A stretch of 64,000 bases of DNA from the NCBI RefSeq assembly GCF_011074885.1, contig NC_054687.1, positions 1 to 64,000 on the forward strand. Direction: 5' to 3'. Shown in pieces: positions 241-19,625 of the stretch (position 1 is the first letter of the stretch; the number at the start of each line of letters is the position of its first letter). A program made the translations under genes and the position numbers. Under the pieces are notes generated by a model. It was not told where the DNA came from and did no database searches. It worked only from the letters and a program-made list of their open reading frames with translations. This DNA is from Brettanomyces bruxellensis. Taxonomy: Eukaryota > Ascomycota > Pichiomycetes > Pichiales > Pichiaceae.

Positions 241-394
241 GCACACAGTGCAGTTTTTCCAGTTCTTTAATAGATAGATATATTATTTGAAATCTTCGTT
301 ATTTAAGTTCAGATCCTCAGAACAAACAAATAAATCTAATGACATATAATAATAGGATTACCTAATTCTAGGTAATATTCTCATATGTCCGACA
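241..394 (-). mobile_element. Relic 610-family LTR end, reverse orientation
   Basis: The stretch ends at 394 in ATATGTCCGACA, the inverted start of the 610-bp LTR family seen complete at 7376-7985, 8351-8960 and 18848-19458. About 100 bp next to this end align well (ACATATAATAATA, GGTAATATTCTCATATG); further left the match decays into short words around CACAGTGCA. No second LTR border is visible, so this is an old truncated solo LTR. The left edge is approximate. Confidence 0.75.
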
Positions 395-670
395 AAAATT
401 TCAGGGGGCAACAAACTGATAGAAGGCAAAATAAAAATATGCGTGAATTTTAGGCTTCGGTATTTTTGGATATTTATTTAAATAAAACACATTTACGGCT
501 TGTCAAAACAATGAAGCTTTCGAACAATGGAGTTCAAGTAAGAAAGATGATATTGTATATATCTGATTAATACGAGAATATTCCTTTGTATATCATTCAT
601 TATACATACTCTTTATTACATACTACAATAAATATCGAATACTATATAATCTGGTAACACTAACTTTAAC

Positions 671-725
671 AATATGTGAGCAACTAAGCAGATACAAAGA
701 TCACACGGGATTATATACTCTGACA
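671..725 (+). mobile_element. Relic 559-family LTR 3' end
   Basis: About 55 bp match the last 55 bp of the 559-bp LTRs at 11252-11810 and 17590-18148 (GAGCAA.TAAGCAGATACAAA, CACACGGGATT, TATACTCTGACA), with a few substitutions. TGG follows at once, as at a primer binding site, but the next bases differ from the PBS of the intact element. It is a fragment of an older copy. Confidence 0.7.
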
Positions 726-1171
726 TGGTCGGACAAATAAAGATATAATAGACAACGGACGAATGGTTCCAAAAGGAAATGGATTAAAGTCCGACCGAAA
801 ATGTTGGAATATTTCACTAATGGTAGAATATACAACGACTTCGATTAATTATTCACTACCTTACCAATTTTCTTTAATTTTCAAACTATCTGAAACCTTA
901 TCACTCTCAGGACTGTTTTATCCGTTATACCTTCTATCTATTTTATTGTATTTCACTGATATTTACATCTTGTGAAAACTTTTTATCACTTTTATTACAC
1001 CTTAAATAACTTAGAAACCATATTTATGGTTTCTGACCTTACCCTGAGGAAGAATATATAAGGGGTCTAGCGACCCCTTGTATTTTCTCACCCTATTATT
1101 ATTTTGTTACTATTTTACCTCTTTCTTTAGACTATCACCGCTATATTATATATCTTAATATAGTTAGTATT

Positions 1172-2265
1172 TGATAAATTTGCCCTCCTCAAATTTTCCT
1201 TTATTGAGTCGTGTTACCTGTACTATATACTAGTATATANNGTGTCCTCAGATAACTTAAGCTTGTCAATACTTAAGTGCTTTGTATCAAATATAGTCTT
1301 GTAAGATCACTAACAAAAATCAACAATTCTTGTAGAAACAGTTAATTTTCTTGTTAATTCATTAACTCGTTAAGAANTCGTTAATTCGTTATTAATCCAT
1401 ATTTCAAAGCGAAGTATCAGTCATAAGACACTCAGGGCAGAGACACTACTATATATATCTGTCCTGACTACAGTAAATTTCCTGCACAACGATTCCCAGA
1501 CCAGAAAATGCAGCCACCATTTTCCTTTGTTTTCCCAGACGAACAATGCCTCCGAATCAGGTGATTCTGCACATTCTGAAACTTGCTGCAGCAACAATGA
1601 TCAATGATCTTTTATTCGTCAATAATTGATCCCGTAATACCTACGCCAAGTGGGGTAACTATTCCCGTTTCCCAGCCGAGTCTTAGGATCCCGTCGGAAC
1701 TTCCCGAGCACTGCGCTCAGTTCGACCTCAGCTCCGGGAACCCATAGTTAACCTGACATTGCCGAATAAAGCCGTCAGATGCAAGATCCACCGTTCGTTG
1801 ACTTGACCATGCCGGCCAAAGCCAAATGCGTAGAAACTCATTTGTCAATTTTATCAACCAACTTGCGCTGGCTGATCAAACTAAATTGATCACTGTAACA
1901 AGCTCCCTTAGTCGAACTAGCAACCTAATTCTCATAAGTTAGCTTGCTCGATTTTCTTCAAATATCAAACCATGCCGGATAAAGCCAGCACGATTTTCTC
2001 TCATCGATTTCCCCAACGCTTCGACCAATATCGACGCGTCTATCGACCAATTCAGAAAATCAAGTTTCTGCTCAGTTTTTCCTCGCTGTCAAAACTATCG
2101 CGGTCTCATCGTTCTGCTCTACTGTAAATTTTACTTCCAAGCTTATGTTTACAACTAAGTATACTTTTGTTGTATCAGGTATTTTTATTTCAGAACAATA
2201 TTCGTTCTTGTTATTATATACCTTTACAAGCATACTTAGCTGATCACATATCTTCAACTTCAACA
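1172..2265 (-). repeat. S repeat (1094 bp, TG..CA), uninterrupted copy
   Basis: Read on the minus strand it begins TGTTGAAGTTGAAG at 2265 and ends AAATTTATCA at 1172. A second copy on the plus strand (10512-11251 joined to 18154-18507) has the same borders and length once the inserted element is removed. TG..CA termini, a TATA-like stretch and an AATAAA near the 3' end make an LTR the best reading. It interrupts a Ty1/copia pol frame exactly after GGAACT (2266-2271), and the same GGAACT follows the other copy at 18508-18513. It contains a 64-codon frame with no known similarity, and two N bases. Confidence 0.8.
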
Positions 2266-5200
2266 AGTTCCGCCTCAGTAGATGACTTGCAGACCAATGG
2301 GGTATACTGGCACTTCCAATAGAGAGGTGCATCCGAAAACATGATGAGAAATCCGTTCATGGACTTCCTTGTAATCGGATCTTGAGCATAGTCACTATCT
2401 GAGTAGCAAATCAAATGATCCATTTTAGTTTCCGAAGTGTGTTGATAAATGATAGATTTGAAACGACTATGATAGAGGTAGTTTAAAACATGTTTCAACT
2501 GATCAACGACTAGACGATGAGGATACGTCGAAAAACGCGCTAAGTAATCAACAGCATAAGCAATATCAGGCCTTGTCATAACCGCGACGTATAATAAACA
2601 ACNAATTTTGCGTCGAAAATCACTGACTGCCTTATTAAGCATCTCCTTAGTAGCTTCTAACGGATGTTCCGCAGTATCGAAGTAGAAATTTGGACTTAAC
2701 GGAGTAGCACAGCTTCTAGCAAAAGTAAGGTGAAGCTTCTCAACGAATTCTTCGATATAGGCAGACTGACATAGCTTAATCTTTTTCACACGACCATCCT
2801 TTAATCTTTCCACAGTGAGATCAATCCCNNAAAACTTCTGTAAATTGGTCTTCTTATCAGGTTGGATCGTTTTAAGCTCATATTTACCAGATATATGTTT
2901 GTAAACTTTGTCCAGTATAGCTTTATTCGAAGCGCCAACAATAATGTCATCCACAAATAAACCAACAACGCAATCGACTTTTCCATTCCGATTCTTATGA
3001 ATGTAGGTGGATGGAAAAGGGTGGGAACTTTCAAAATTAATTTTGGCCAAATGTTTCTGAATTTCCTTATGCCACAAATTGCCCGATTGCTTGAGACCAT
3101 ATAAAGCTTTGTTAAGCTTATAGACCCACCCTCATGCCGGATGGCACTTTTGCATGCCTTGTGTGGGTAGAATACCCTTGAGGCTGATAAATGTACAATT
3201 CGGTATCAATAGGACTGTATAGATAAGCAGTTTTGACATCAAACTGAGCCATAAACCAATGCTGAGTAGCAATAAGAGCAAAAATCGCTCTCATGATCTC
3301 TGGTCGAAGAGTTGGAGAAAATGTAATTGAATATGTATTCTCCTTCTGGTGATCACCGCGAGCAACGAGACGTGCTTTGCGTCGACCATCAGATTTAACG
3401 GTAAAAACCCAACTTGTGGAGACGCAGCAATTCAAAATTTTCGGATCATCTGTAAGAATTGGATTGCGATCCCATGTGTTATGTATATGATGAGAGTGAA
3501 ACTCGTCATCAATTGCTGCCTTCCATTTTGCAGCGTCCTTGCTGCACATCGCTTGTTTGTAACCTTTCGGATTAGCTGCGAGATAAATGTCGCTTAACAA
3601 CACTTGAAAAATCCGTGGCTTCTTCCGAGCAACCATATAGGTACGCTCAGGAGCAGAAGATTCGCCAGGAGTGCTGTTAATCAACGGCACCGAGGAACGG
3701 GTGTCCCCATTCACAAGATCATCATAAGTATGTTTTCTTGATAAACGAGTTCCAGTCCTAAAAGGCTCTAAGGAAGAGAATTTGGACTTGTTCAAACGGC
3801 TTGAACCCTTCTCGGTCTTCACTTTTTCACCAGCAGAAGTCGCAGGAATCACTTGAAATGATATCTTATGGCCAGAGGATCCGGATTTGTCCGCCAAAGT
3901 ATCATGAGGTGAAGTAACTTGAGGTAACTTAGAGTGATTGACTTCTCCATCCAATGACGAGTTGAGTAATGCTCGATCATCTTCATGTTCTGCTTGTAAA
4001 GGGATGTTAAGATGCCTGGTCGTAGTATGATGCTTGGACTCCGTGTGATTGTGTCCAGTTAGTCTCTGATAATCCTTTTCACCAGCATTTAAACTTGGTG
4101 AATCAGAAACTGCAAATTTCTCAGGTTCGACCACGGGCAACGGACGATTTAACGTGCTCAGTGCTTCCATATTTTCAGGAACTGTCACTCTGGAAGTAGC
4201 AAGATTGTTCGATTCCTTTCCACCGACAACAGGGTTGTCGTCAGTAGAAGTTGCAGTAGATCTCTCAGCTTTAACGTTCTCCTTAGGAGCTTGGGGCATT
4301 GAATGCTTCGCTCCCTTAATCTTACCAGCATGACCAACCATAGGTGAACGCTTCGCATTAGGAGCGGGCTTCGATGAAACTTTCTTGGGTTTAGTACCCT
4401 TGGCAGGCTTCTTAAAGTTTGGCTTCCTGTAATGCAGTTGAGGAGTTGAGTGATCTCCTGCATCCAAGTCGAAAAGCATAGTAGTTTCCGCTGTAGGCTT
4501 CTCGTCTGATGCTTGGATAGTCTGAGGTTCCTCTGAGTTTGAGACTTCACGTAAGTCGGCAGCGCTCTCAATATCATCAGAGTAGTCCTCAGACGTAGAA
4601 GAAGTAGTATACAGTATGTCTGAATTATCATCTGAATCTGGCACCCAGTCAGAATCACTTTCGTAGTCATCGTCTGAACTGGATACAATTGGACTGCCAG
4701 CACGCAATGTGGGCTCTGTCACAATCGAATGATCATCATCTTCAGATAGCTCGGTCTCCATAGCAGCATCGTCGTAGAGCTTTCTGTCAACAGGAATAGA
4801 TGACGCATTCTGACCTTCAGATAATCCAACAATACTCGGCACCTCAGAAGAAATATCACTTGATGCATCATCAGCAGATAGATCGGCAAAACTCTCAATT
4901 CTTGGATCATAAAGTGACTGCAATGAATCATCCACGCGTGATTGAGGTGTAAGAAAATAGTCTGTATAAAGTACAGACGGGTTCATAAATTGAACATGGC
5001 GTGTATCCGTAAATGTACCGTAACGTGTGTCTCCTGGCGTATTCGGGATGAAGACTTGGCAACCAAAGGTTTCATTGCTCCATCCAAGATATATGCCCTG
5101 AACAGCCCTTTCCCCAAGCTTAGGTGTGTATTTCGGAGGGTAAGTAACCTCACAAAGTTCACCAAAGATATGCAAATCCTTAGTTTTGGGAGACATAAAC

Positions 5201-6240
5201 TTGAGTTTAAGTGACGGACTGGTTCCAATATTATCATTCACGAGATTGTTCCTGACAAATACTGAATATAGCACAGCTTCCTTCCAAAAATTGTGAGAAA
5301 CTTTACCAGAATGCAACATGGCACGCGCATCATTCATAATCGTTAAGTTCAAGCGTTCAGCAACACCATTAGACGCAGATGTATAACCGGAGGTAGTATG
5401 AAGTTCAATACCTTCACGTTCTAATATGTTTTTCAATTCAGCATTTAAGTATTCAGTACCTTTATCTGAGAAGATTTTATGCACTCTGTATCCTTCCTTG
5501 CTAAATTGGTTTGATACCCATCGAACGTATTTATCAACTGCACGAGCAACATCACTCTTGTGTTTCATCATAAAAACCGTTGTATACTTAGTATATTGGT
5601 CCTTAAAAGTAACAAAGCAACCCATTTCGCCAACACTCGTGTGCGTCTTGACAATGCAAACATCGGAATAAACAACATCAAAAGGAATAGGACGCAAGTA
5701 ATAGTCTCTTGAACCCTCTATAGCATTTGCTCGTCTCGCCTTCGCTTCCATACAATCAACACAACCTTTGCTGAGCAATTCATCAAGTTCCTTTATTTCC
5801 TTCTTCGAAGCAGTAGTCGTCCCATGATTAATAGACTTTTTGATTAGCCTAGGGTTAGCATGAGCCAATTTAAGATGTAAGTTGTTTATATGCAATTGTC
5901 CTCCACCAATCATAAACTGATTAAAATCACCTGGTATATACCATAGCTTGTTAACTTGAACTAACTGAATACATTCATCTCCAACATTGAGAACCTTTGA
6001 ATAAGTCTGAGATTTGGTACCAAAATCGTGAAAGTAGGTCTGAATTCGGCATTCAGGGCAACGGTTGATATCGTCTTCTGAAAAGATAGTAGGAGCACCC
6101 TCATAATAGTGTAGGTAGAGTGTAAGACTTTATCGTCCTTGCGGAAAGGCATGTAATCATGTAGCCATTCCCTATGACCTGTGAGACTAATGGCAGCGCC
6201 ATTATCAATTAAGATAAAATCTCGAATGCCTCGGAGTATT
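2266..6240 (-). pseudogene. Element 1 pol (protease-integrase-RT-partial RNase H), broken
   Basis: Domain order is that of Ty1/copia. A protease-like motif D-N-G-A lies at about 6200. The integrase zinc motif (H..H..CxxC) and a D,D35E core (SDKGTEY, then SASNGVAER) follow between about 5880 and 5340. Next come an acidic Ser-rich spacer and RT (KARLVARGDHQKE, FDVKTAYL, LFVDDIIVGA). Lesions against the intact copy at 13072-17604: a deletion of roughly 25 codons near 6130 that changes frame; one extra base in the CCC/GGG run at 3125-3127, which ends the upstream frame at 3118; N bases at 2603 and 2829-2830; and truncation by S at 2266 just after the STEAEL motif of RNase H. Confidence 0.9.
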
Positions 6241-6660
6241 CAAACTATCCATTGGCACGCTGCCTAGGACTTGTAACTCGGAGATATTAGTAGATTCATC
6301 GCTCAATTTGACATTATTCATATTCTCCTTCCTCTCATTCTTCTTGCCTTTGTTAGATTGATCCTTCTTCTGATGATCAGATCCATGCGAACGGTTATTA
6401 TTCGGCGGCTCTTGTCTTTTCTTGTTTTTCGAAATGCTGGAATAACCTTGCTTGTTGGAAGTCACAAAGATTGACTTGGAAAGCGACTTCGAAACAATCG
6501 CAGCATTACGTTTAGACTTGACTTTTCTTTCGATCCATTTCTTAAATTCAACTAAGTCGTTTATTTCATCAAATTCTGAACAATTTCCTTTAATCGATTC
6601 AGCGACACCGGGTCTAAGATGGGCCAAAATATCTGTATCCCCGTGATAGCAACTACAACC
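6205..6660 (-). pseudogene. Element 1 gag remnant (C-terminal part)
   Basis: About 140 codons aligned with the C-terminal half of Gag of the intact element (the LRPGV / LKPGV segment, a FKKWI / FKEWI segment, then a Lys/Asn/Gln-rich basic tail). It opens without an ATG, and upstream, towards 7375, all frames carry stops. The frame ends at 6205 and overlaps pol in the +1 frame. A CCG-AGG-C heptamer sits at 6228-6234 in gag phase, at the place matching CCG-AGT-T in the intact copy, so it is a candidate +1 frameshift site. Confidence 0.75.
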
Positions 6661-7356
6661 ATTTTATAGATGTAATGACATTGTCAATGATGTTGACATA
6701 AACACTAAAGAGGCTTCTAATAATCATCATGCCTGATAACATCTAAAACATTCCTAAACCATCCTGATGTAATTCAATGTTTGTCACAATCGTAAGTTCC
6801 CAGAATAATAAGTAGGGCTTGCAGTATTCTATGAACAAAATTCCATTTGCATAAGCAGCTCTATTCATCAATAGCAGAGTTTGGTAGTAATTCCATTTCT
6901 GACAAATTTCTGATTAATATATATGAGATCATCTCGTTAAGAATATCGAGTAGGAACAGCTTCCTTGACTCAAAATTGAGATAACAACAATTCACGCGCA
7001 GCAAAATATGATTTCACTTGAAAAGTAAACGAATCATTAAACATCTTTANGCATCGAAATAATGTATCTGAAGCTCAGTTAAAAACCAGCTGATAAAGAT
7101 AATATGAATGAGATTATGTAATCGATATGATCAGCGATCTACACAAATTTCTCAATCTGTTAACACTCATAACGGATCTTAGAAAATTTTCCCAGGAGGC
7201 ATAACCTGAAAATATTTTCATCAAGTGAGAATTTTTCTTGAGAGAAATTCAGTAGACATAATAAAAAAAATTCCTTCTCGTAGAATTCTCAACTAAATTC
7301 AAAAGAAAAAAGATGGCATACACATCTGCCTCTTCACAAAAATCACACAAATTGGT

Positions 7357-7375
7357 TATCCTGTCTGTGACGCCA
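7357..7375 (-). other. Primer binding site of element 1
   Basis: Directly after the LTR on the minus strand stands TGGCGTCACAGACAGGATA, identical to the site after the 5' LTR of the intact element (11811-11829). Its complement has the layout of a tRNA 3' end: five T-stem bases, seven acceptor bases, a G discriminator and CCA. A G discriminator fits tRNA-Ser best. Confidence 0.75.
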
Positions 7376-7985
7376 TGTCGGAGTTAAGAGAGACCTTATG
7401 AGTTACTCCCGGGCTTTAGCTATCAAACTCCTTCTTTAATAGAACTAATAAGAACCTAGCAGTCGGGGAGATTCAGACAATTGTAAGGTCGGTTACCTAA
7501 GTGGGTGGATATAAATGTACCAAGTGGTCTGTGTGATAATGTTAATGCCTTTAACATTCTAACAATTGTGTATGTATCACCATAGAAGAAAATNAATTTA
7601 CTTCCTTTACTCTGTTACCATCAAAGTGGAGTCGAACTAGTTGTATTGCAAAATAGGCTATCGGGTCTCGTCCCTTCGTAGAAGAAACAAGTTATATAAA
7701 AAGAGGTAAAGTAAAGTAAAAATAAAAAGGAAAATAAAGTGAGGTAATCATACATAATAAAAAAAAAGATTTAATTCTCAGAAACAGAATTATGATCGCG
7801 CATAATTATTTTTCTGCTGATTTCCTAACATACACAGTTAGTGCATTTTANCCAGGATTGTCTCTATTAGATATTATTCTAAATCTTCGTTATTTTAGAA
7901 TAAGTTCAGATCTCAAAACAAATAAATCTAATGACATATAATAATAGATTACCTAATACTAGGTAATATTCTCATATGTCCGACA
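7376..7985 (-). mobile_element. LTR C, 5' LTR of element 1
   Basis: 610 bp bounded by TGTCGG..CCGACA (TG..CA with inverted termini), in reverse orientation. Apart from two N bases it is the exact inverse of the LTR at 8351-8960, and nearly identical to 18848-19458. The PBS adjoins its inner edge. Confidence 0.95.
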
Positions 7986-7995
7986 GAGAGGTCTC

Positions 7996-8340
7996 ATGAG
8001 TTACTCCCAGGTGGTTTAGCTATCAAAATCCTTCTTTAATAGAACTAATAAGAACCTAGTAGTTGGGGAGATTCAGACAATTGTAAGGTCGGTTACCTAA
8101 GTGGGTGGATATAACTGTACCAAGTGATATGTGTGATAATGTTAATGCCTTTAACATTCTAACAATTGTGTATGTGTCACCATAGAAGAAAATGAATTTA
8201 CTTTTTTTACTCTGTTACCATCAAAATGGAGTCGAACTAGTTGTATTGCAAAATAGGCTATCGGGTCTCGTCCCTTTGTAGAAGAAACAAGTTATATAAA
8301 AAGAGGAAAGGTAAAGTAAAAATAAAAAGGAGAATAAAGT
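7996..8340 (-). mobile_element. LTR D, partial 610-family LTR
   Basis: Reverse-oriented internal part of the 610-bp LTR: about 255 bp are missing at its 5' side and about 20 bp at its 3' side. It differs from LTR C by scattered substitutions (for example GTAGTTGGGG against GCAGTCGGGG), so it is older than the near-identical full LTRs. Both its edges meet the 10-bp GAGAGGTCTC arms of the inverted repeat. Confidence 0.9.
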
Positions 8341-8350
8341 GAGACCTCTC

Positions 8351-8960
8351 TGTCGGACATATGAGAATATTACCTAGTATTAGGTAATCTATTATTATAT
8401 GTCATTAGATTTATTTGTTTTGAGATCTGAACTTATTCTAAAATAACGAAGATTTAGAATAATATCTAATAGAGACAATCCTGGATAAAATGCACTAACT
8501 GTGTATGTTAGGAAATCAGCAGAAAAATAATTATGCGCGATCATAATTCTGTTTCTGAGAATTAAATCTTTTTTTTTATTATGTATGATTACCTCACTTT
8601 ATTTTCCTTTTTATTTTTACTTTACTTTACCTCTTTTTATATAACTTGTTTCTTCTACGAAGGGACGAGACCCGATAGCCTATTTTGCAATACAACTAGT
8701 TCGACTCCACTTTGATGGTAACAGAGTAAAGGAAGTAAATTTATTTTCTTCTATGGTGATACATACACAATTGTTAGAATGTTAAAGGCATTAACATTAT
8801 CACACAGACCACTTGGTACATTTATATCCACCCACTTAGGTAACCGACCTTACAATTGTCTGAATCTCCCCGACTGCTAGGTTCTTATTAGTTCTATTAA
8901 AGAAGGAGTTTGATAGCTAAAGCCCGGGAGTAACTCATAAGGTCTCTCTTAACTCCGACA
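8351..8960 (+). mobile_element. LTR B, solo 610-family LTR
   Basis: A complete 610-bp LTR in forward orientation (TGTCGGACAT..TCCGACA). No PBS follows (CCACTAAAAG) and no polypurine tract precedes it, and the flanking five bases differ (CTCTC left, CCACT right), so it is a solo or rearranged LTR without a target duplication. Confidence 0.93.
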
Positions 8961-10511
8961 CCACTAAAAGATGAAGTATTGTATGTTGTAAAATAATGCT
9001 TTTTGAATGTTATGATGTAATTTAAGTAAGTGCGGAAGTACTGTATAATGAAATAATCAACTAGTTTGTATTCACTAGGATATAGATAAAAGCACCCCTT
9101 TGTATATGTTTATAATTTGAAGTATTAATGTATTTATTTTTAATGACTTGTTTTTTTTTTTATTTGTTTTATTTGTTTTTCTTATTTTTATCTTCTTGTT
9201 ATATTTTCTCTTATTCTTATCTCTGTTGTTCTTATTCTTGTCTGTCTTCTTCTTATCTAAGCTGTTGCTTTTTCTTTCTTATCTTCATCTTGAGTTTTCC
9301 AAAAAGACTAAATACTCATTTAATATTTTCTCGTTTTTCTGCTTAATAAAATATTTGCATCTCGTCGTCCAATTTTAATAAATAATTCGCTCATGTTGCT
9401 TCGCTCATAATATTACGTAACCATTTGGATAACACGTGACTTTTCCTTGTTCGATCCCTCACATAAATTGTAAATGGTCGGACTGAAGGTAACAAAATAT
9501 TATTTTCAATAACCTGAAGTATAAGGATGCTTTAGATGATTACCAAATCCGTCTAAAGATATATAATAAATTAATAAGATTGTTATCTGATACTTCTCGT
9601 ATCTTTCTTCTTTTTTATCATAGCTATCTATGAAACATTCTATTCGTTCATTATTCAATGTAATAACTTCTCTCCCTCATTTCTCTTTTCTAGAAAAATA
9701 ACTAAATCATAATCTAACCTTGTCTCCATATCAAAGTAGGGCAAGGGCGCATATTTATATTAAATGGAGAATGACACTTCTTCCATTTCTCTTCCAATTT
9801 CATACAATAAAAAATTGTATGCCAAAGAGGAATCCATCCTGTTTGGGAACATCACATTATGTGAATTCAGCATAACCCGCGATCATGCAAAAACCTGTTG
9901 TTTTGCAAATGCAGTCGCCACACGAATATTAGTCAGCTTATTCCGATGTAGCTCTTTCTTATTGTCTTTCGGATCACTATCCTTTCAGTGCGCTTTATTT
10001 CTTATTCGCGCTTCTCATAAATTATTTCGGAAACTATTTATATGTTTCCGTGTTACCTAATCAGGTAAATGAATTCATTAATATTTTATCTGGCTTTAAA
10101 CCAATATGCGCTTGGTTTGACCCCTTACATTACCGCCGTTTTTTAGAAAAATCGTCCTCGATTTATAATTTTTTTAACATCTCACAACAACATTTAGATA
10201 TCTTCGTAAGCATTGCCTGGTGTTAGCATATTTCCTTCTTAGGAAAATGAAATCATATGATACGTACAAGTATCTGATATCTTTGTTGGAGTCATCAATT
10301 CAAACAAACGTTCATAACTAGTCTTAACAATCAAAGTATGTCATAGGTATCTAACAAACATGTTTTGGAGAGCAATCTTGCTCGAAGACTTCATATGTCT
10401 TGTATCAGTTAATACCTGCTATACCAATAATTTCACAAAGTCTGTCTCGGACTTCGAAATCGGTGCGCGGAGGTTCTTTGGGGTAAATAGCATCTTGCTT
10501 TAAGTATGGTT
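8961..10511 (+). other. Non-coding stretch between LTR B and S
   Basis: AT-rich, with a long pyrimidine tract at about 9148-9300. A 98-codon frame at 9764-10060 begins with ATG but is Phe/Ser/Leu-rich, lacks motifs and is not supported as a gene. The last bases before S (10512) are not a polypurine tract, so there is no sign of a normal element interior. The stretch may be original flank carried by the rearrangement. Confidence 0.5.
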
Positions 10512-11251
10512 TGTTGAAGTTGAAGATATGTGATCAGCTAAGTATGCTTGTAAAGGTATATAATAACAAGAACGAATATTGTTCTGAAATAAAAATACCT
10601 GATACAACAAAAGTATACTTAGTTGTAAACATAAGCTTGGAAGTAAAATTTACAGTAGAGCAGAACGATGAGACCGCGATAGTTTTGACAGCGAGGAAAA
10701 ACTGAGCAGAAACTTGATTTTCTGAATTGGTCGATAGACGCGTCGATATTGGTCGAAGCGTTGGGGAAATCGATGAGAGAAAATCGTGCTGGCTTTATCC
10801 GGCATGGTTTGATCTTTGAAGAAAATCGAGCAAGTTAACTTATGAGAATTAGGTTGCTAGTTCGACTAAGGGAGCTTGTTACAGTGATCAATTTAGTTTG
10901 ATCAGCCAGCGCAAGTTGGTTGATAAAATTGACAAATGAGTTTCTACGCATTTGGCTTTGGCCGGCATGGTCAAGTCAACGAACGGTGGATCTTGCATCT
11001 GACGGCTTTATTCGGCAATGTCAGGTTAACTATGGGTTCCCGGAGCTGAGGTCGAACTGAGCGCAGTGCTCGGGAAGTTCCGACGGGATCCTAAGACTCG
11101 GCTGGGAAACGGGAATAGTTACCCCACTTGGCGTAGGTATTACGGGATCAATTATTGACGAATAAAAGATCATTGATCATTGTTGCTGCAGCAAGTTTCA
11201 GAATGTGCAGAATCACCTGATTCGGAGGCATTGTTCGTCTGGGAAAACAAA
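10512..11251 (+). repeat. S repeat, first part (740 bp), split by element 2
   Basis: Begins TGTTGAAGTTG and is the inverse of 1526-2265. It breaks after ACAAA at 11247-11251, where element 2 is inserted; the rest continues at 18154. It carries three copies of a motif GGCTTTRNYCGGCA(A)TG at 10791, 10954 and 11004, and a GC-richer block at about 11030-11125. A 64-codon frame up to 10705 has no recognised similarity. Confidence 0.85.
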
Positions 11252-11810
11252 TGTCGGAACCTATGAGTTATAATAATGTTTCATATGTTAATAACGCATA
11301 AAGGTTCAACTGGTATTTGATTTATAATATGTGAATCAAATTAATGTTCAGACAGATAGAAGAAATAATTCGCGGGGAAATTTTTCCTGTGAAATAAATT
11401 TCTCCCTAATCTACTTTCGGCTGAGAATGACCTATTCCACTTCTGCGGAAAAATATCTCTTATATGTATGTACTACTTTTTCCTTATATACTATGTGTCT
11501 CTTAGAAGGGACGACGACTTTATTGTGTAATTTGCAATACATATTCTTATAAGGAAATCCATCTTGAAGTGAACCTTCAGCTGAAACCAAGAGTAACCTT
11601 CGGGTTCTCGCTGGATTACAAACGTGTTCGTAAGGACCCTATTTTGTTATGGGGGTCATTCTATGCAACAGAAGTCTTTTCTATATCCGAACTATATGGC
11701 CAATCCCGTTCATAACCTTGGGCATCTGCGCGCTCGGTAGTGCTACGGCACAGAGATATGTGAGCAATTAAGNAGATACAAATGTCACACGGGATTTATA
11801 TACTCTGACA
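11252..11810 (+). mobile_element. LTR E, 5' LTR of element 2
   Basis: 559 bp, TGTCGGAACC..TACTCTGACA, identical to 17590-18148 but for one substitution and one N (11773). It shares only the TGTCGGA start with the 610-bp family, so it is a distinct LTR family driving a closely related internal region. Confidence 0.95.
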
Positions 11811-11829
11811 TGGCGTCACAGACAGGATA
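11811..11829 (+). other. Primer binding site of element 2
   Basis: TGGCGTCACAGACAGGATA lies directly next to the 5' LTR with no spacer. The first 18 bases fit the complement of a tRNA 3' end (CCA, G discriminator, seven acceptor bases, five T-stem bases). The same site serves element 1 although the LTRs belong to a different family. Confidence 0.75.
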
Positions 11830-12144
11830 CTCAGTTTTGCATAAGAATTGTGGTTCGCGACACTATTAGTTTTTCAAATACTCTTTCATTTCGGATCGGC
11901 GAGAATTAACCCTTTCCAGGGAATTTTCACTAACAAATTTTTCATACGGTTTTATTGCACCGTGTGGGAAAATTTCTCATTGGTCAATTTAGGTCGACAG
12001 AGGATTTTTCTTAGTTGCATAATACTTTTGTGCTACCTAGGATTAAGATCTAGCCTAATACCTCTAAAATTCACAGATTTACAATTGCAAAATCTTCTCA
12101 ACTACTTGCAAATATTATCAGGCACTACTGTTCAATTTACCAAC

Positions 12145-13071
12145 ATGTACTCAGCTTCCAATTCAACCGAATCTTCTCAATCATCAGAACTTCTTCGTAG
12201 CCTTGTTAGGGCTATAACCAATACTAATGAAACTTTGAAGTTGATTCATCAGGATCTCGCTGTTAAGCGTCTTGACCCTGAGAAAATCAGAAAGACGGTT
12301 AAGGAAAGTGTTGTCCCTGCTATTCATTTTTTGCGGGACGAAGATGGACAATGTAGTCCTATGGTGTTCATTCGCTACTTAAGTGAGCTTAGAAGTGCTC
12401 TAAAGGACTATGGTTATGAGCAGGTCTGTGCTAACTTTGCAGAACAGAAATATGACTCCGTCTCTGACGAAGAGGAGTTATTCACGAACGAGACTTTGAA
12501 ACAAACAAACGATGGCTCTGTTTATGTTATGTTGAGAGATTACTATAGGAAATCTCACGGCAAGTATCCATCCGCAGCAAAGATGTTGAATCTTTTACGT
12601 GACCGACACTCGACTATTAAGCATAGCAAGCAGTCTTATCTTAAGGCCCTTGCAAAACTTCGGTATGAAGATTATACCAAACCCTTTTTGGACTACTTTA
12701 ATCTAATNGATGACTTTATTAATGCTATTAAGAGCGACGGTTACAAAGTCGATGATGATGATATCCTAGAGGCATTGAAACCAGGTGTTGTTAAGTTGTG
12801 CGAGAACGATCGAAACGAACTCAATCAAGTTACTACACTAACTGAATTTAAGGAGTGGATCATTAAGGAGGTCAAGATCCAACGTGTCCCTAACAGGGAG
12901 GAGGTTCAGATCCCAAAATACTTATTGAAGGGTCTTTACCATTCTCAGACCGACTCTAGCGGCACACACAACAAACAAAAGCAATATTCTTCGAAGCACG
13001 GTCAATCTAAAGGGCAGAGTCAATCGAAGAAGGACTCACCCGAGAAGAAAATGTTCACAACTTCAACTTGA
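12145..13071 (+). CDS. gag: Element 2 Gag
   Basis: Capsid-type protein of a Ty1/copia element, 308 codons from the first ATG of a frame that is open from 11848. The 5' part from 11848 has no ATG and is taken as leader. It shows Ser/Thr-rich residues 1-25, a helical charged middle, an FKEWIIKEVK segment near the C-terminus and a Lys/Gln/Ser-rich basic tail. There is no CCHC zinc knuckle, as is usual for yeast Ty1-type Gag. It ends in TGA at 13069. The frame that resembles the Gag C-terminus of element 1 continues instead in the third frame to TAA at 13149, so a base seems to be missing in or near the A run at about 13050. One N at 12708 leaves one residue undefined. Confidence 0.85.
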   Translation: MYSASNSTESSQSSELLRSLVRAITNTNETLKLIHQDLAVKRLDPEKIRKTVKESVVPAIHFLRDEDGQCSPMVFIRYLSELRSALKDYGYEQVCANFAEQKYDSVSDEEELFTNETLKQTNDGSVYVMLRDYYRKSHGKYPSAAKMLNLLRDRHSTIKHSKQSYLKALAKLRYEDYTKPFLDYFNLXDDFINAIKSDGYKVDDDDILEALKPGVVKLCENDRNELNQVTTLTEFKEWIIKEVKIQRVPNREEVQIPKYLLKGLYHSQTDSSGTHNKQKQYSSKHGQSKGQSQSKKDSPEKKMFTTST

Positions 13072-16000
13072 ATAATCACAACGTCATATCTGATCTTGAA
13101 TTATTGGGAGGTGTTCCGATGTCAGGTAAGAACTTACCGAGTTTCGTCTAATCTTATACTTATTGATGGAGGAGCGGGAATTAGTCTTACCGGGCACAAG
13201 GAATGGTTACATGATTTTGTACCACTTACAGAATCCGACAATATTCAATCAATAGCCTACGATCATTCAACGAAAAATCTAGAGGGTCTAGGCAGGTTGA
13301 TCTTTAATTATACTGGAAATTTACTCTCAGTTGATGCTTATTATTACGAGGGTGCCCCAACTATTCTTTCAGAAGACGATATAAACAAATGTCCAGAGTG
13401 CAGTACTCAAATCTATCATCATGACTTCGGAACTACTTCTCAAAGTTATTCGAAGGTTCTAAATGTTGGTGAAGAGTGCATACAGCTTATTCAAATCGAC
13501 AAGCTATGGTATATTCCTGGCGACTACAACCAATTCATTGTTGGCGGTGGTCAAATGGCAATCAATAATTTACATTTAAAACTAGGACATGCCAATACAA
13601 AGCTGATTCGAGACTCTATCTCTCACGGAACGATCTCTGTTTCCAAGGAGGAGAAAAATGAGCTAAAGCACACAGCGGATCATGGTTGCGCAAGATGCTT
13701 ACGGGCAAAAGCGAGACGTGCTGATGCAGTCGAATATTCTCGTGATTATTATTTGCGCCCAGTACCGTTTGATATGGTTTATACAGATGTTTGTGTTGTC
13801 AATCTGCACGCTAAGAAAGGCGACCAAGGTTACTTTGTTACTTTCAAGGACCAGTTTACGAAGTTCACTACAATTTACTTCCTGGCTCATAAGAATGATG
13901 TTACCGCGGCGGTCGCCAAATACTTGGATTGGGTGGAAAATCAGTTCAGCGAACAAGGGTACAGAGTGCACAAACTCTATTCTGATAAGGGCACTGAATA
14001 CCTGAACGCTGCAATGAAGACACTTCTTGAGCGAAAAGGTGTGGAACATCATACGACCTCAGGATACATGTCGGCATCCAACGGTGTTGCAGAACGGTTG
14101 AATTTGACAATAATGAATGACACTCGTGCTATGTTACAGGCTGGAAAAGTTCCTAACGCATTTTGGAAAGAGGCAGCGTCATATTCTATCTTTATACGCA
14201 ACCACCTCTACCAGAAGAGCATTGACACTAGTCCAGTAATGGCACTGGGAGTGAAGACTCCATTGAAGGCAAAGGATATACATGTTTTTGGCGAATATTG
14301 CGTTGTTACTCAACCTCCGGATTACTTACCCAAGCTTCACACTAGAGGTAATGAAGGAATATATCTAGGATTTGATCCAAACACTTTTGGCTCTCATGTC
14401 TTTGTTCCAAACACTCCGGGAGATTTGCGATTTGGCAGTCATGTTTATTCAAGGAGCGTGAGTTTTCTCAAGACGCCCATGTTGTATGTGGATTACTGCT
14501 TGAATCATCGAACTTTGAATGATGACCCTCTTATGGAACTTTATGATCCGCGTTTTCAAATATTTGCCGATCTAGAGACAGAGGAAGCACCATTAAGTTG
14601 CGACGAAGCAGCATTGCTTGCTGACGATCAGGTTGAAAATGATTTAACATTGTCACCCGCTGTCGAAAGGACGTCGCGTATCGATTCAAGTATCGACACG
14701 AGACCTGCTACCCCTGAAGATGAGTTGATAGACACTCGCCCTAAAGAAAATATTTCAAGGGCTGGAGCGCTCACTACGTCTTCCCTTGCTAAAGAGGAAA
14801 TAGAAGCAGAACCTCCTAAGGTTACAGACGATACCATTGTCATTGATACCTCACCTGGAGATACTCAGTCTTTCCACGAGTCGACGGATCATCCTGGAAA
14901 TTTAAGTACGGATGAGTCTGACAACGACCCGGACTGGACCCCTGACAACGTCAGTATGCAAGACTCTTCTTCCGAGCCTGAGGATTACTCAGATGACGAC
15001 TCACGTGAGCTGTCTGATGATGAACCTCAGACTAACCAGGCCCCAGACGAAAGAAAGGATGTAGAAGGTACTTCTCTTTTCGACCTGGATCCAGGAGATC
15101 ATTCGACTTCCGGAATACACTACAAGAAACTTCCACCCGAGGTAAGGGTCGAGGCGAAGAATCCCGGAAAGTCGCTCGTTAGCCAAAATGCTGGTAGGGC
15201 TAAGCATCCAAAGCGTTCTCGGAAAAGACGCGAGGGTGCACAGAGCGACAAGTTGAATAAATCAAATGGTCGCTCTACTAAAGGTGGTAACACTACTACC
15301 AATGGTAGAGCAAATTTTAAACCAACTGTTGTTTCCACTGCAAAGGAGTCAGGGGACTCTTTGCAAACTTTAAATCCATCGGATAGCTTCGGTAAGCATG
15401 TGAAAGTTGGAGTTTCTGATACATGCAAGTTAGATGCATGGACTGAAGACAATCAGAAGCCGAAGGGTGCAGATCCTGTTAAGGCAGGGATCGAACAACG
15501 AAAGCATACGGAGCATTCAGTCGCACGCACTATAACATCAGACGACAAGAGCGCTGGCAGTCAGCTGATGCCAAACTCTTCAATCAAGCAAGCCAAACAC
15601 GGAGATAAATCACCTCAAGATTACCCACATCCTCCAAGACTCGATTCCGGAAAAACGAGCAGTGAGACGTCTTCTTCCGTGGCTGGTAAAAAGTCTGAAG
15701 TTACATCTTCTAAAGGGAATAGCTTACCATCGTGGCAAGGTCGTAATATGCGTTCATTGAATCGACCATTAACTAGAAAACGTCAATTTCATGATGATGG
15801 CGATCTGGACCGATATGACAGCACGGTGCCACCGATCGGCACAGGTAGATCTAGGCTGAAAGCAAAAGGCCGCTGGCGTTATGCGGTTAAACACAAGAAG
15901 CTCAAGGTCACCCAAGTGTTGCTAAGTGATGTTCACCTGGCAGTTACACCAAGTAGCTACAAGAAGGCGATAAGCAGTAATGATGGAGCTGCAAAGTGGA

Positions 16001-17604
16001 AAGCAGCAATTGCTGATGAGTTTAACTCTCATCGGAAACATTGCACCTGGGATCCCAAACCTATTATTACAGATGATCCTAGAATTTTGAGCCGGACGGT
16101 CTCCACAGGTTGGGTCTTCAACATCAAGTCAGATGGTCGGTTCAAAGCGAGACTCGTTGCTCACGGCGACCACCAGAAGGAGTCAACATACACCTTGACT
16201 TTTTCCCCGACACTTCGACCTGAGATCATGAGGAGCATTCTTGCTCTTATTGCTACACAACACTGGTTCATGGCACAGTTTGATGTTAAAACGGCTTATC
16301 TTAATAGTCCAATTGATACCGAATTGTACATCTATCAGCCACAGGGCTATCATAGTTCTGTCAAACCTTCCGATGTATCAACCGGTAAGAGGGTGGTGTA
16401 CAGGCTTAACAAAGCCTTATATGGTCTCAAGCAATCTGGAAAATTATGGCACGAGACAATCAAGGCATATTTGGCTAAGATTGGATTTGAATATTCGAGC
16501 CCATTTCCTTCCACATACATTCATAAAGATGTCAAGGGAAAAACAGATTGCGTGGTTGGTCTATTTGTGGATGATATTATTATAGGTGCATCGACCAAAT
16601 CTATTCTTGAGAAGGTCACTAAGCACTTACAGAAAGCTTATGAATTAAAGATCATCGAACAAGATCCAAAGACATATGTTCAAAGATTTTTAGGTATAGA
16701 TCTTAAGGTGGAGAGACTTAAAAATGGTCGTGTTGGAAGAATTAGTTTATGTCAGTCCTCTTACATTGAAGAGTTTGTTGAGAAACTGAAGATTGAGATG
16801 ACACGAAAATGCGCTACACCGTTGAGTCCTAACTTTTATTTTGATATGGATCAACACCCGTTGAAATTAACTCAAGAGGAATTGGATAAAAGAGTTACGG
16901 ATTATAGACGCAAGATTGGTTGTTTACTTTATGTCTCTACTATGACTCGACCAGACATTGCTTATGCAGTTGATTATTTAGCAAGATTCTCTACTTATCC
17001 ACATGATTTAGTAAGAGAACAGGTGATTCACACAATTCGATATCTCTATTTTTCGAGATTCAGGACAATTGTTTATCAGAACACTGACGCCGATAAGCTT
17101 AATCATCTAATTTGCTATTCGGATAGTGACTATGCGCAAGATCCAATTACTCGTCAATCGATGAATGGTTATTTTATCATGTTTGCTAATGCGCCAGTTC
17201 ATTGGAGAAGTCACTACACTCCACTGGTGTGCAAGTCTTCTACCGAAGCTGAATTACAAGCCATCAATTTCTTAACTGATGAGTTAGAATGGTTCCATCC
17301 TTTGATGAAATTTATTTCTGCTTATCAAGGAAAGGTTCATTGTCCTGAGTTACTAGTCGACAACAAGTCTGCCATAGATACAATAGTCTTCGGTAATTTT
17401 TCGCCGAAGGCAAAGCCATATGCAGTCAGGCTTAAATGTCTTGAAGAGAGATTTAATCGAAAGAAGTTTGTCATCAGGCATGTTGGCACAGAAAACCAAT
17501 TAGCTGATTTGCTTACTAAACCAATAACTATCAAGGTCATGGATAAACTAAGGCACATGCTTATTCAGATGTTACAAATCAAGGGAGCGTGTCGGAACCT
17601 ATGA
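13072..17604 (+). CDS. pol: Element 2 Pol polyprotein (PR-IN-RT-RH)
   Basis: About 1500 codons without a stop. Protease motif D-G-G-A-G at 13165, with Gly where Ser or Thr is usual. Integrase zinc motif H..H..CxxC at about 13570-13700, and D, D and E of the integrase core at about 13786, 13983 and 14091 with 35 residues between the last two. A 450-residue acidic, Ser-rich spacer follows. RT has RLVAHGDHQKE, FDVKTAYLNSP and LFVDDIIIGA (about 16560). RNase H has CYSDSDYAQD, SSTEAELQA and the closing DLLTKP. No ATG opens it, so it should be made by +1 frameshifting from gag, probably at CCG-AGT-T (13137-13143). The stop lies 15 bp inside the 3' LTR. Confidence 0.95.
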   Translation: MITTSYLILNYWEVFRCQVRTYRVSSNLILIDGGAGISLTGHKEWLHDFVPLTESDNIQSIAYDHSTKNLEGLGRLIFNYTGNLLSVDAYYYEGAPTILSEDDINKCPECSTQIYHHDFGTTSQSYSKVLNVGEECIQLIQIDKLWYIPGDYNQFIVGGGQMAINNLHLKLGHANTKLIRDSISHGTISVSKEEKNELKHTADHGCARCLRAKARRADAVEYSRDYYLRPVPFDMVYTDVCVVNLHAKKGDQGYFVTFKDQFTKFTTIYFLAHKNDVTAAVAKYLDWVENQFSEQGYRVHKLYSDKGTEYLNAAMKTLLERKGVEHHTTSGYMSASNGVAERLNLTIMNDTRAMLQAGKVPNAFWKEAASYSIFIRNHLYQKSIDTSPVMALGVKTPLKAKDIHVFGEYCVVTQPPDYLPKLHTRGNEGIYLGFDPNTFGSHVFVPNTPGDLRFGSHVYSRSVSFLKTPMLYVDYCLNHRTLNDDPLMELYDPRFQIFADLETEEAPLSCDEAALLADDQVENDLTLSPAVERTSRIDSSIDTRPATPEDELIDTRPKENISRAGALTTSSLAKEEIEAEPPKVTDDTIVIDTSPGDTQSFHESTDHPGNLSTDESDNDPDWTPDNVSMQDSSSEPEDYSDDDSRELSDDEPQTNQAPDERKDVEGTSLFDLDPGDHSTSGIHYKKLPPEVRVEAKNPGKSLVSQNAGRAKHPKRSRKRREGAQSDKLNKSNGRSTKGGNTTTNGRANFKPTVVSTAKESGDSLQTLNPSDSFGKHVKVGVSDTCKLDAWTEDNQKPKGADPVKAGIEQRKHTEHSVARTITSDDKSAGSQLMPNSSIKQAKHGDKSPQDYPHPPRLDSGKTSSETSSSVAGKKSEVTSSKGNSLPSWQGRNMRSLNRPLTRKRQFHDDGDLDRYDSTVPPIGTGRSRLKAKGRWRYAVKHKKLKVTQVLLSDVHLAVTPSSYKKAISSNDGAAKWKAAIADEFNSHRKHCTWDPKPIITDDPRILSRTVSTGWVFNIKSDGRFKARLVAHGDHQKESTYTLTFSPTLRPEIMRSILALIATQHWFMAQFDVKTAYLNSPIDTELYIYQPQGYHSSVKPSDVSTGKRVVYRLNKALYGLKQSGKLWHETIKAYLAKIGFEYSSPFPSTYIHKDVKGKTDCVVGLFVDDIIIGASTKSILEKVTKHLQKAYELKIIEQDPKTYVQRFLGIDLKVERLKNGRVGRISLCQSSYIEEFVEKLKIEMTRKCATPLSPNFYFDMDQHPLKLTQEELDKRVTDYRRKIGCLLYVSTMTRPDIAYAVDYLARFSTYPHDLVREQVIHTIRYLYFSRFRTIVYQNTDADKLNHLICYSDSDYAQDPITRQSMNGYFIMFANAPVHWRSHYTPLVCKSSTEAELQAINFLTDELEWFHPLMKFISAYQGKVHCPELLVDNKSAIDTIVFGNFSPKAKPYAVRLKCLEERFNRKKFVIRHVGTENQLADLLTKPITIKVMDKLRHMLIQMLQIKGACRNL
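13137..13143 (+). promoter_or_regulatory. Candidate +1 frameshift site CCG-AGT-T
   Basis: In the gag C-terminal frame the codons read CCG AGT TTC GTC TAA; shifting +1 after CCG enters the pol frame. The position-equivalent site of element 1 (6228-6234) reads CCG-AGG-C. Ty3 uses GCG-AGU-U and Ty1 CUU-AGG-C, so the shape matches known yeast +1 sites. Function is inferred. Confidence 0.55.
17581..17589 (+). other. Polypurine tract of element 2
   Basis: AAGGGAGCG directly precedes the 3' LTR. The same nine bases precede LTR A at 18839-18847. It overlaps the last pol codons, so pol runs into the LTR. Confidence 0.75.
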
Positions 17605-18148
17605 GTTATAATAATGTTTCATATGTTAATAACGCATAAAGGTTCAACTGGTATTTGATTTATAATATGTGAATCAAATTAATGTTCAGACAGATAGAAG
17701 AAATAATTCGCGGGGAAATTTTTCCTGTGAAATAAATTTCTCCCTAATCTACTTTCGGCTGAGAATGACCTATTCCACTTCTGCGGAAAAATATCTCTTA
17801 TATGTATGTACTACTTTTTCCTTATATACTATGTGTCTCTTAGAAGGGACGACGACTTTATTGTGTAATTTGCAATACATATTCATATAAGGAAATCCAT
17901 CTTGAAGTGAACCTTCAGCTGAAACCAAGAGTAACCTTCGGGTTCTCGCTGGATTACAAACGTGTTCGTAAGGACCCTATTTTGTTATGGGGGTCATTCT
18001 ATGCAACAGAAGTCTTTTCTATATCCGAACTATATGGCCAATCCCGTTCATAACCTTGGGCATCTGCGCGCTCGGTAGTGCTACGGCACAGAGATATGTG
18101 AGCAATTAAGCAGATACAAATGTCACACGGGATTTATATACTCTGACA
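17590..18148 (+). mobile_element. LTR F, 3' LTR of element 2
   Basis: 559 bp, TGTCGGAACC..TACTCTGACA, followed by the ACAAA target duplication at 18149-18153. It pairs with LTR E. Confidence 0.95.
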
Positions 18149-18507
18149 ACAAAGGAAAATGGTGGCTGCATTTTCTGGTCTGGGAATCGTTGTGCAGGAA
18201 ATTTACTGTAGTCAGGACAGATATATATAGTAGTGTCTCTGCCCTGAGTGTCTTATGACTGATACTTCGCTTTGAAATATGGATGGACAACGAATTAACG
18301 AGTTTCTAACGAGTTAACGAATTAACAAGAAAATTAACTGTTTCTACAAGAATTGTTGATTTTTGTTAGTGATCTTACAAGACTATATTTGATACAAAGC
18401 ACTTAAGTATTGACAAGCTTAAGTTATCTGAGGACACGTTATATAATAGTATATAGCACAGGTAACACGACTCAATAAAGGAAAATTTGAGGAGGGCAAA
18501 TTTATCA
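18149..18507 (+). repeat. S repeat, second part
   Basis: Starts with the duplicated ACAAA and continues S for 354 bp to its 3' border TTTATCA at 18507. It is the inverse of 1172-1525 with minor differences. At 18290-18335 lies a cluster of AACGARTTAACGA-like words, and an AATAAA stands near the end. Together with 10512-11251 it makes 1094 bp. Confidence 0.85.
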
Positions 18508-18874
18508 GGAACTTCAGGCAATTTACCTACTTTCTAATGAGCTTGAATGGTTTCACCCTCTCATGAAGTTCATGTCCGCTTATCAAGGCGAAGGAAATTA
18601 TCCTGAACTTTTAGTGGATAACAAATCCGCTGTTGATACGATAGTTTATGGTAACTTTTCACCAAAATCAAAGCCATACGCTGTCAGGTTGAAATGTTTA
18701 GAAGAACGATTTGAAGAGAAGCGTTTCATTATCAAACACGTTAGTACGAAGGACCAGTTAGCTGATATTCTTACTAAACCTATTACTACCAAGGTATTGG
18801 GTAAGTTAAGGAGCATGATTATTCAGATGCTACAAATCAAGGGAGCGTGTCGGACATATGAGAATATTACCTAG
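18508..18874 (+). pseudogene. Pol C-terminal fragment (RNase H end) of the 610-family
   Basis: The frame resumes exactly after S with GGAACT (18508-18513) and encodes the end of RNase H: ELQAIYLLSNELEW, a VDNKSAVD motif, HVSTKDQLADILTKP and a C-terminal QMLQIKGACR. It stops 27 bp inside LTR A. It supplies precisely the part missing from element 1, whose pol breaks at the same GGAACT (2266-2271). It has no start of its own. Confidence 0.9.
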
Positions 18875-19458
18875 TATTAGGTAATCTATTATTATATGTC
18901 ATTAGATTTATTTGTTTTGAGATCTGAACTTATTCTAAAATAACGAAGATTTAGAATAATATCTAATAGAGACAATCCTGGAGAAAATGCACTAACTGTG
19001 TATGTTAGGGAATCAGCAGAAAAATAATTATGCGCGATCATAATTCTGTTTCTGAGAATTAAATATTTTTTTTTTATTATGTATGATTACCTCACTTTAT
19101 TTTCCTTTTTATTTTTACTTTACTTTACCTCTTTTTATATAACTTGTTTCTTCTACGAAGGGACGAGACCCGATAGCCTATTTTGCAATACAACTAGTTC
19201 GACTCCACTTTGATGGTAACAGAGTAAAGGAAGTAAATTCATTTTCTTCTATGGTGATACATACACAATTGTTAGAATGTTAAAGGCATTAACATTATCA
19301 CACAGACCACTTGGTACATTTATATCCACCCACTTAGGTAACCGACCTTACAATTGTCTGAATCTCCCCGACTGCTAGGTTCTTATTAGTTCTATTAAAG
19401 AAGGAGTTTGATAGCTAAAGCCCGGGAGTAACTCATAAGGTCTCTCTTAACTCCGACA
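18848..19458 (+). mobile_element. LTR A, 3' LTR of the 610-family
   Basis: 611 bp, TGTCGGACAT..TCCGACA, preceded by the polypurine tract AAGGGAGCG. It differs from LTR B/C at a handful of sites (for example GGAG/GGAT, AGGGAATC/AGGAAATC). It ends about 90 bp upstream of the tRNA-Ile gene, a typical distance for insertion upstream of Pol III genes. Confidence 0.95.
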
Positions 19459-19547
19459 CAAAACAAACACACAAATCACTTTGGACTTACATAATCTAAA
19501 ATAATTTAGGTTCAAAATAAAGCAGACCCCTTACAGTTGACGCTAAT

Positions 19548-19621
19548 GGTCCCTTGGCCCAGTTGGTTAAGGCATCGTGCTAATAACGCGAGGATCAGCA
19601 GTTCGACCCTGCTAGGGACCA
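19548..19621 (+). tRNA. tRNA-Ile(AAU)
   Basis: A 74-nt cloverleaf with acceptor stem GGTCCCT/AGGGACC, A box TGGCCCAGTTGG (19555-19566), anticodon loop CTAATAA with anticodon AAT at 19582-19584, and B box GTTCGACCC (19601-19609). It closely matches yeast tRNA-Ile(AAU). No intron. It is a likely anchor for the retrotransposon insertions to its left. Confidence 0.97.
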
Positions 19622-19625
19622 TTTA

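What the first reader, a model, noticed from the sequence alone, without database searches (positions are those of the whole stretch)
2266..18513. One pol gene split by S, its halves now in opposite orientation
On the minus strand pol runs to ..GGAACT at 2271-2266 and S starts. On the plus strand S ends and GGAACT at 18508 continues with the exact missing RNase H part and LTR A. The shared GGAACT looks like a 5-6 bp target duplication of an S insertion into the 610-family element. The outer borders (S end at 1172, S start at 10512) do not carry it. The simplest history is a TG..CA element with S as LTR inserted in pol, then an inversion or fold-back that separated its two ends.
Basis: partly seen in the sequence, partly recalled or inferred. 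Interest (0 to 1): 0.75.

Follow-up and report, generated by a model that had tools for sequence, protein, structure and literature searches.

The report
Jumping-gene remnants flipped a DNA segment
In a yeast, probably Brettanomyces bruxellensis, two leftover ends of one jumping element lie in opposite directions and appear to have recombined, flipping about 8 kb of DNA and splitting another jumping element's gene; this is a known kind of rearrangement, seen here in unusual detail.

Summary
Observation confirmed. The window is the start of contig C6 of a 13.1 Mb yeast genome, most likely Brettanomyces bruxellensis UCD 2041. The two halves of one copia-type pol gene (family A) meet S at the same base, in opposite orientation, each carrying GGAACT. 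In 12 of 12 other close genomic copies the halves adjoin across this six-base site; the window's halves are the exception.

S is the 1,094-bp TG..CA LTR of a separate copia-type element. Whole S elements and solo S with 5-bp duplications occur elsewhere. The window's S copies are not the two LTRs of one inserted element: neither borders its primer-binding site or polypurine tract. They are solo-type, inverted copies; S(-) is mosaic at a few sites, its 3' end matching an S joined to the same outer flank on C8. A 6.9-kb B element is nested in S(+).

Best explanation: solo S in pol, then inversion of about 8.2 kb by recombination with an inverted S that was itself recombinant. It lies in an S cluster; LTR clusters of this species have been likened to centromeres in print. 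Not shown: the uninverted order, a functional centromere, exclusion of assembly error.

The parts
1..1171 (-). Flank X, joined to the 3' end of S(-). Near S it resembles sequence that elsewhere lies just before a possible gag start of another element; contains an A-LTR fragment (229-394) and a B-LTR fragment (672-725)
   Evidence: X-like sequence without S at C9:1876946-1877190, C9:1879232-1879487, C4:814853-815108 and, more diverged, C4:823648-823796. The gag start is my reading by eye
1172..2265 (-). S(-): solo-type S LTR, 1094 bp, TG..CA, mosaic at its 3' end
   Evidence: also read in the overlapping contig end C4:827656-828753
2266..2271 (-). GGAACT, first copy of the target duplication of S in pol
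2272..6127 (-). A element: pol up to the break (integrase, SH3-like and reverse transcriptase matches), read as two ORFs, 2244-3077 and 3118-5913
6128..7375 (-). A element: remaining gag side and leader with primer-binding site
   Evidence: (6124-7985 matches C8 at 99.4%)
7376..7984 (-). LTR A, 5' LTR of the split A element
7985..8343 (-). Fragment of an older LTR A between two opposed full LTRs
8351..8960 (+). Second LTR A, inverted relative to 7376-7984; together a palindrome with 621-bp arms at 99.7%
8962..9463 (+). LTR-like repeat Y1; four pairs of copies 5935 bp apart elsewhere
9466..10511 (+). [not shown]
10512..11251 (+). S(+), 5' part
11252..18148 (+). B element nested in S(+): LTRs 11252-11810 and 17590-18148 (99.6% identical), ORFs 11848-13071 and 13096-17604, duplication ACAAA
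18149..18507 (+). S(+), 3' part (begins with the second ACAAA)
18508..18513 (+). GGAACT, second copy of the target duplication
18514..18847 (+). A element: 3' end of pol and polypurine tract
   Evidence: homologous to the end of B pol at 75%
18848..19458 (+). LTR A, 3' LTR of the split A element
19547..19622 (+). tRNA-Ile (AAT), beside the cluster

Best explanation
An A element (copia-type) lay beside tRNA-Ile. A solo S LTR (or an S element reduced to one LTR) sat in its pol at GGAACT. A second S, in inverted orientation about 8 kb away, joined element Z to flank X. Crossing over between the two inverted S copies flipped the segment between them (about 2266-10511) and so put the 5' part of the A element on the minus strand while its 3' end stayed beside the tRNA gene. 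The Z-S-X copy was itself recombinant, because neither the duplication partner expected for S in Z nor the one expected for S in X was found; loss of the DNA between an S in Z and an S in X would produce it. A B element jumped, at an unknown time, into the S that is now S(+). Shown: the halves, the duplication, the uninterrupted site, the inverted S pair, the solo-type borders, the mosaic S(-). Inferred: the crossover itself, the order of events, the deletion step.
For: Both halves break at the same base and share GGAACT; in 12 of 12 other copies at 97% or more they adjoin there, and C8 shows the uninterrupted site. Both halves are 100% identical to the same four copies, C9:1459k, C9:997k, C8:604k, C3:110k. 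The S copies are inverted and 99.7% identical over the first 741 bp, on one contig. S makes 5-bp duplications as solo LTR (C7 TTACC, twice in one tandem unit; C8 CAAAC) and as whole element (C8 GTCAT). Among the 18 rows, 1034C and 1045T are in S(-), its C4 reading and C8:2931611-2932011 alone, and the last is joined to the same X start; 1026A is in C4 and that C8 copy (N in S(-)); 906T also, but in one solo S too. S(+) has 873G/874G/876C together, as only the two LTRs of the whole C8 element do. 180A is in S(-), its C4 reading and S(+), against G in 11 of 11 other rows covering it. X-like and Z copies without S show where S once sat.
Against: The uninverted order was not seen in any sequence. 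The split A element has no matching duplication at its outer ends (upstream CTCTC, downstream CAAAA), although 3 of 6 solo A LTRs scanned have one, so a further LTR exchange is needed; the C8 A element lacks one too (TATTA/GAATC). The Z-S-X partner needs a further event. S copies with both ends but no duplication are common here (C4:818967, C4:823805, C7:1607417, and the outer flanks of the whole C1 element). The mosaic rests on few sites, and the 3' third of S is the more variable part in most comparisons. X identity to the C8 copy falls away from S (203 of 254 columns). Assembly error is not excluded: C6 begins here, with N bases, and the overlapping C4 end is of low quality (96.9%, 144 gap openings). 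If C4 were a separate locus, there would be two orphan 5' halves.
Confidence: 0.74

Rival explanations
1. Assembly flip: in the cell the order is pol-S(with B)-pol and X-S-Z, and the assembler turned the segment between two inverted, near-identical S copies.
For: The contig ends here, N bases occur, S is 1.1 kb and with B about 8 kb of repeat; the first 741 bp of the two S copies differ at only 2 positions.
Against: The pol 5'-S(-)-X junction is present in two contig ends, C6 and C4, although these may share reads. S(-) and S(+) keep distinct letters at 304 and 325, so the copies were not merged. The paper that best fits this assembly used corrected PacBio reads (PMC7052964, passages), which normally span 1.1 kb (own knowledge).
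Confidence: 0.15
2. One reading: a whole S-LTR element inserted in pol, and an inversion pulled its two LTRs apart.
For: Whole S elements exist, one of them inside the pol of another A element, at a different site (C8:2914229-2921029). Target duplication at GGAACT.
Against: Neither window S borders the primer-binding site or polypurine tract of the S element, and no part of C6:1-24000 matches the internal regions of the whole S elements on C1 and C8 in the blocks listed (150 bp or longer).
Confidence: 0.04
3. Two independent exchanges (gene conversion, break-induced replication or translocation) joined each pol half to a different S neighbour, without a single reciprocal inversion.
For: Many scrambled S borders in these clusters; the S-X junction is also on C8; the split A element lacks an outer duplication.
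Against: One reciprocal event explains both halves, their inverted orientation and their 8-kb distance; both orphan halves lie in one cluster and no other close copy is left without its partner.
Confidence: 0.07

Closest known systems
Ty1/delta ectopic recombination in Saccharomyces cerevisiae (PMC9879454, passages seen)
   Same: [quoted passage not shown] recombination between flanking deltas leaves a solo LTR
   Different: There induced by cuts in Ty1; here inferred from sequence, between solo LTRs of a family found only in a few clusters, with a target duplication split between the two junctions
LTR clusters of Brettanomyces bruxellensis UMY321 (PMC7313668, passages seen)
   Same: At least 96 solo LTRs, some grouped in regions up to 40 kb, likened by the authors to centromeres; most elements related to Debaryomyces hansenii Tdh5
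   Different: The passages seen describe no single rearrangement and the word inversion does not occur in the main text; whether S is one of their families was not tested
Ty5-like clusters at yeast centromeres (Cyberlindnera sargentensis, Ogataea polymorpha, Scheffersomyces stipitis; PMC12711049, passages seen)
   Same: [quoted passage not shown] sargentensis; inverted repeats formed by parts of retrotransposons
   Different: [quoted passage not shown]
Flip/flop mating-type inversion beside a centromere in Ogataea polymorpha (PMC5720833, start of abstract in a search listing)
   Same: Inversion of a segment under centromeric influence in a budding yeast
   Different: There a regulated 19-kb switch carrying MAT genes; here the segment holds retroelement sequence in all parts identified

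Membership tests
LTR of an LTR retrotransposon (S) | TG..CA ends and pairs of direct copies flanking a coding region | tested here: met
   C1:8788-9879/14507-15598 and C8:2914229-2915323/2919936-2921029 each flank a 1487-aa ORF
LTR of an LTR retrotransposon (S) | Short target duplication | tested here: met
   TTACC twice (C7, one tandem unit), CAAAC and GTCAT (C8); not at four other copies or elements. GGAACT in pol is 6 bp, or 5 bp if S begins one base earlier
Ty1/copia group (S, A, B) | Integrase domain upstream of an RVT_2 reverse transcriptase | tested here: met
   Pfam: rve before RVT_2 in S, A and B; RVT_2 is above, rve below Pfam's own cut-off in all three
Ty5-like | Primer-binding site matching the anticodon stem-loop of tRNA-iMet | tested here: not met
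   Sequence after the 5' LTR of S, A and B lacks TTATGAG; longest match of S 7 nt, outside the anticodon loop (tRNA letters recalled from S. cerevisiae, the host's own tRNA not fetched)
Inversion by recombination between inverted repeats | Both breakpoints lie in inverted copies of one repeat | tested here: met
Inversion by recombination between inverted repeats | Reciprocal junctions of one interrupted sequence | tested here: met
   pol halves and GGAACT; the outer Z and X pair has no duplication
Inversion by recombination between inverted repeats | Uninverted order in another strain or in reads | not testable with these tools
   I found no other strain or reads of this species among the tools
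Retroelement-cluster centromere | One cluster per chromosome and element confined to it | tested here: inconclusive
   27 S matches (a lower bound, 461-bp query) lie in 7 stretches; C9 internal, C8/C1 and C4/C6 contig ends overlap; no overlap of C7 end and C2 start of 600 bp or more found
Retroelement-cluster centromere | Bound by the centromeric histone or at a Hi-C centromere peak | not testable with these tools
   no such data held

The most novel reading that the evidence does not exclude
The inverted S pair at the edge of the S cluster is a standing flip switch: both orientations of the 8-kb segment exist in the population, and repeated S-S exchange keeps remodelling the border of a retroelement centromere.
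Probability: 0.17. Interest if true: 0.5.

Novelty: new member of a known kind. Interest (0 to 1): 0.33.

Why it matters
It is a compact record of how solo LTRs remodel a probable yeast centromere region: one split target duplication, an uninterrupted reference site, a mosaic LTR and a nested young element let the order of breaks be argued from sequence. If centromeres of this species are such clusters, S-S inversions offer one route to the karyotype variation reported for the species (PMC7052964 and PMC6493715, passages). For annotation, the halves should be recorded as one disrupted A element, not as two elements.

Tried and rejected
S as the paired LTRs of a single inserted element: rejected because neither border has the primer-binding site or polypurine tract. 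Two different A elements broken independently: rejected as unlikely. Search for the lost partners of the outer junctions: S end followed by the Z continuation, 0 matches; the X duplication before the S start, with 1 mismatch allowed, 2 matches, one an S with TATAC (C9:1876312) and one at C9:3566395 that I did not study. A regulated switch: Pfam scans of 17 window ORFs between 19.9 and 63.3 kb showed kinase, aminotransferase, VPS28 and other household proteins, no mating-type domain at E 0.001; the ORF list was cut at 150 aa. Rfam on 1-26000: 0 matches. The first self-comparison printed no rows, cause not traced, and was redone. Protein searches for B pol (24 hits) and S pol (13 hits) gave no named yeast relative; the Sec24 search (best 120 of 1039 listed) has Ogataea, Candida arabinofermentans and C. 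boidinii as its best named hits. Papers: Ty5 with Brettanomyces bruxellensis and centromere, 0 papers; Brettanomyces with centromere, retrotransposon and LTR, 5 papers; with LTR retrotransposon and copia, 3 papers; general searches on Ogataea centromere inversions and LTR inversions were seen as listings. PMC5633375: passages, no mention of centromere or transposon. That this inversion is absent from print rests on no more than these.
Full report
What was checked. The window is G000:C6:1-64000, the start of a contig of 1,390,784 bases in a genome of 13,135,849 bases in 9 contigs. The length of contig C8, 2,936,442, equals the N50 of 2.936 Mb printed for B. bruxellensis AWRI2804 = UCD 2041 in PMC7052964, where the length is 13.20 Mb in 12 contigs (passages). 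I therefore take the host to be that species; this is an inference, and the contig count and length differ.

The split. GGAACT stands at 2271-2266 (minus) next to S and at 18508-18513 (plus) after S. On C8 an A element, 99.4-99.7% identical in the matching blocks, reads across the site without a break. Of 14 places with the 600 bp before the site at 97% or more, and 13 with the 335 bp after it, 12 pairs lie six bases apart (seven in one, where the match starts a base late). The remaining rows are the window's two halves and C4:828759. Weaker rows were left out of these counts: 16 of 30 before the site (15 of family B at 67%, one 89% fragment on C2) and 16 of 29 after it (14 of family B at 74-75%, two short fragments at 83 and 79%).

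What S is. S is 1,094 bp, TG..CA. A 461-bp piece of it gives 27 matches in the genome, a lower bound, all in seven stretches: the starts of C1, C2 and C6, the ends of C4, C7 and C8, and the inside of C9. The A and B LTR matches listed (52 and 45 rows; 40 of 134 and 40 of 105 candidates scored) lie on all nine contigs. Two whole S elements were seen, each with a 1487-aa ORF that matches integrase and RVT_2 reverse transcriptase; integrase is below Pfam's cut-off, and the zinc knuckle is above it in one of the two. Target duplications: TTACC, CAAAC, GTCAT. Three solo-type copies with both ends, and the outer flanks of the whole C1 element, lack one.

The two window copies. S(-) is 2265-1172. S(+) is 10512-11251 plus 18149-18507 with a whole B element between, flanked by ACAAA; no other S copy in the stretches compared is broken at that place by a B element. 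Neither window copy borders S internal sequence. S(-) is followed by AATACTAACT; X-like sequence without S reads CATATTAATAGAATACTAGC at two places on C9 and one on C4, and a fourth, on C4, is more diverged, so an S once entered X there. S(+) follows TATGGTT of element Z, which at three other places continues TGAACC or TAAACC, so an S once entered Z. The lost partners of these two entries were not found.

Mosaic. In an alignment of 18 rows (more diverged S copies were left out) S(-) shares 1034C and 1045T only with its C4 reading and with C8:2931611-2932011, which is joined to the same X start. S(+) has 873G, 874G and 876C together as only the whole C8 element does. 180A is in S(-), its C4 reading and S(+) alone. 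Letters of S(-) at 893-894 and 1026 are unsure (swapped against the rest, or N). So the outer part of S(-) seems to have a different descent from the outer part of S(+), as exchange within S predicts. The sites are few, and the 3' third of S is the more variable part in most comparisons.

History. The least costly order is: A beside tRNA-Ile; S into its pol (GGAACT); other S copies in Z and in X; loss of the DNA between those two, leaving Z-S-X; crossing over between Z-S-X and the inverted S in pol, turning about 8.2 kb. B entered S(+) at an unknown time; its LTRs are 99.6% identical. Against a simple story: the A element's outer flanks CTCTC and CAAAA do not match, as those of the C8 A element do not, although 3 of 6 solo A LTRs scanned have a duplication. 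Next to its 5' LTR lies an opposed LTR A with 12 bases of the same flank (7376-7996 against 8340-8960, 99.7%), so a further LTR event took place.

Contigs and setting. C4:826464-834315, the end of C4, matches C6:1-7818 in the same direction (96.9%, 72 mismatches, 144 gap openings), and the end of C8 matches the start of C1 (99.2%). If these overlaps are true, two of the clusters lie inside chromosomes, as does that on C9. No overlap of 600 bp or more was found between C7's end and the first 8,000 bases of C2. Clusters of solo LTRs up to 40 kb, likened to centromeres, are in print for this species (PMC7313668, passages), and another study cloned two CEN loci (PMC4999066, passages) whose relation to S I did not test. 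Whether S clusters are the centromeres is open.

Comparison. Inversion by crossover between inverted Ty elements, and solo LTRs by recombination, are described for baker's yeast (PMC9879454, passages). S, A and B are copia-type by domains, but the Ty5 mark given in PMC12711049 (passages) was not seen. The finding is a new, clearly resolved instance of a known process.

Noticed in passing
7376-8960: Two full LTR A copies in opposite orientation (621-bp arms, 99.7%) with a 343-bp spacer of older LTR A; both share the same 12-bp upstream flank, like a fold-back.
   Followed up: partly
C6:1-7818 and C4:826464-834315; C1:3-3940 and C8:2932482-2936418: Contig ends overlap in the same direction, so C4/C6 and C8/C1 are probably neighbours on one chromosome each.
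   Followed up: partly
C7:1609709-1625000 (L028, L029): Tandem array with a period of about 7.44 kb: B elements sharing LTRs, two units with the same solo S (duplication TTACC) inside.
   Followed up: no
C8:2914229-2921029 (L024, L025): A whole S element sits in the pol of another A element, at a different site from the window's; with the C7 array this shows S entering other retroelements more than once.
   Followed up: partly
11811-11829 and 7375-7357 (minus): Families A and B, with pol about 68-71% alike in the matching blocks, share the same sequence after the 5' LTR, TGGCGTCACAGACAGGATA, perhaps one primer tRNA.
   Followed up: no
8962-10511: Two further repeat families: Y1, with four pairs of copies 5935 bp apart, and Z, with a frequent part of about 664 bp.
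   Followed up: no
window, 11 positions (1240 to 12708): All 11 N bases of the window lie in the first 12.7 kb, marking low-quality sequence at the contig end.
   Followed up: yes
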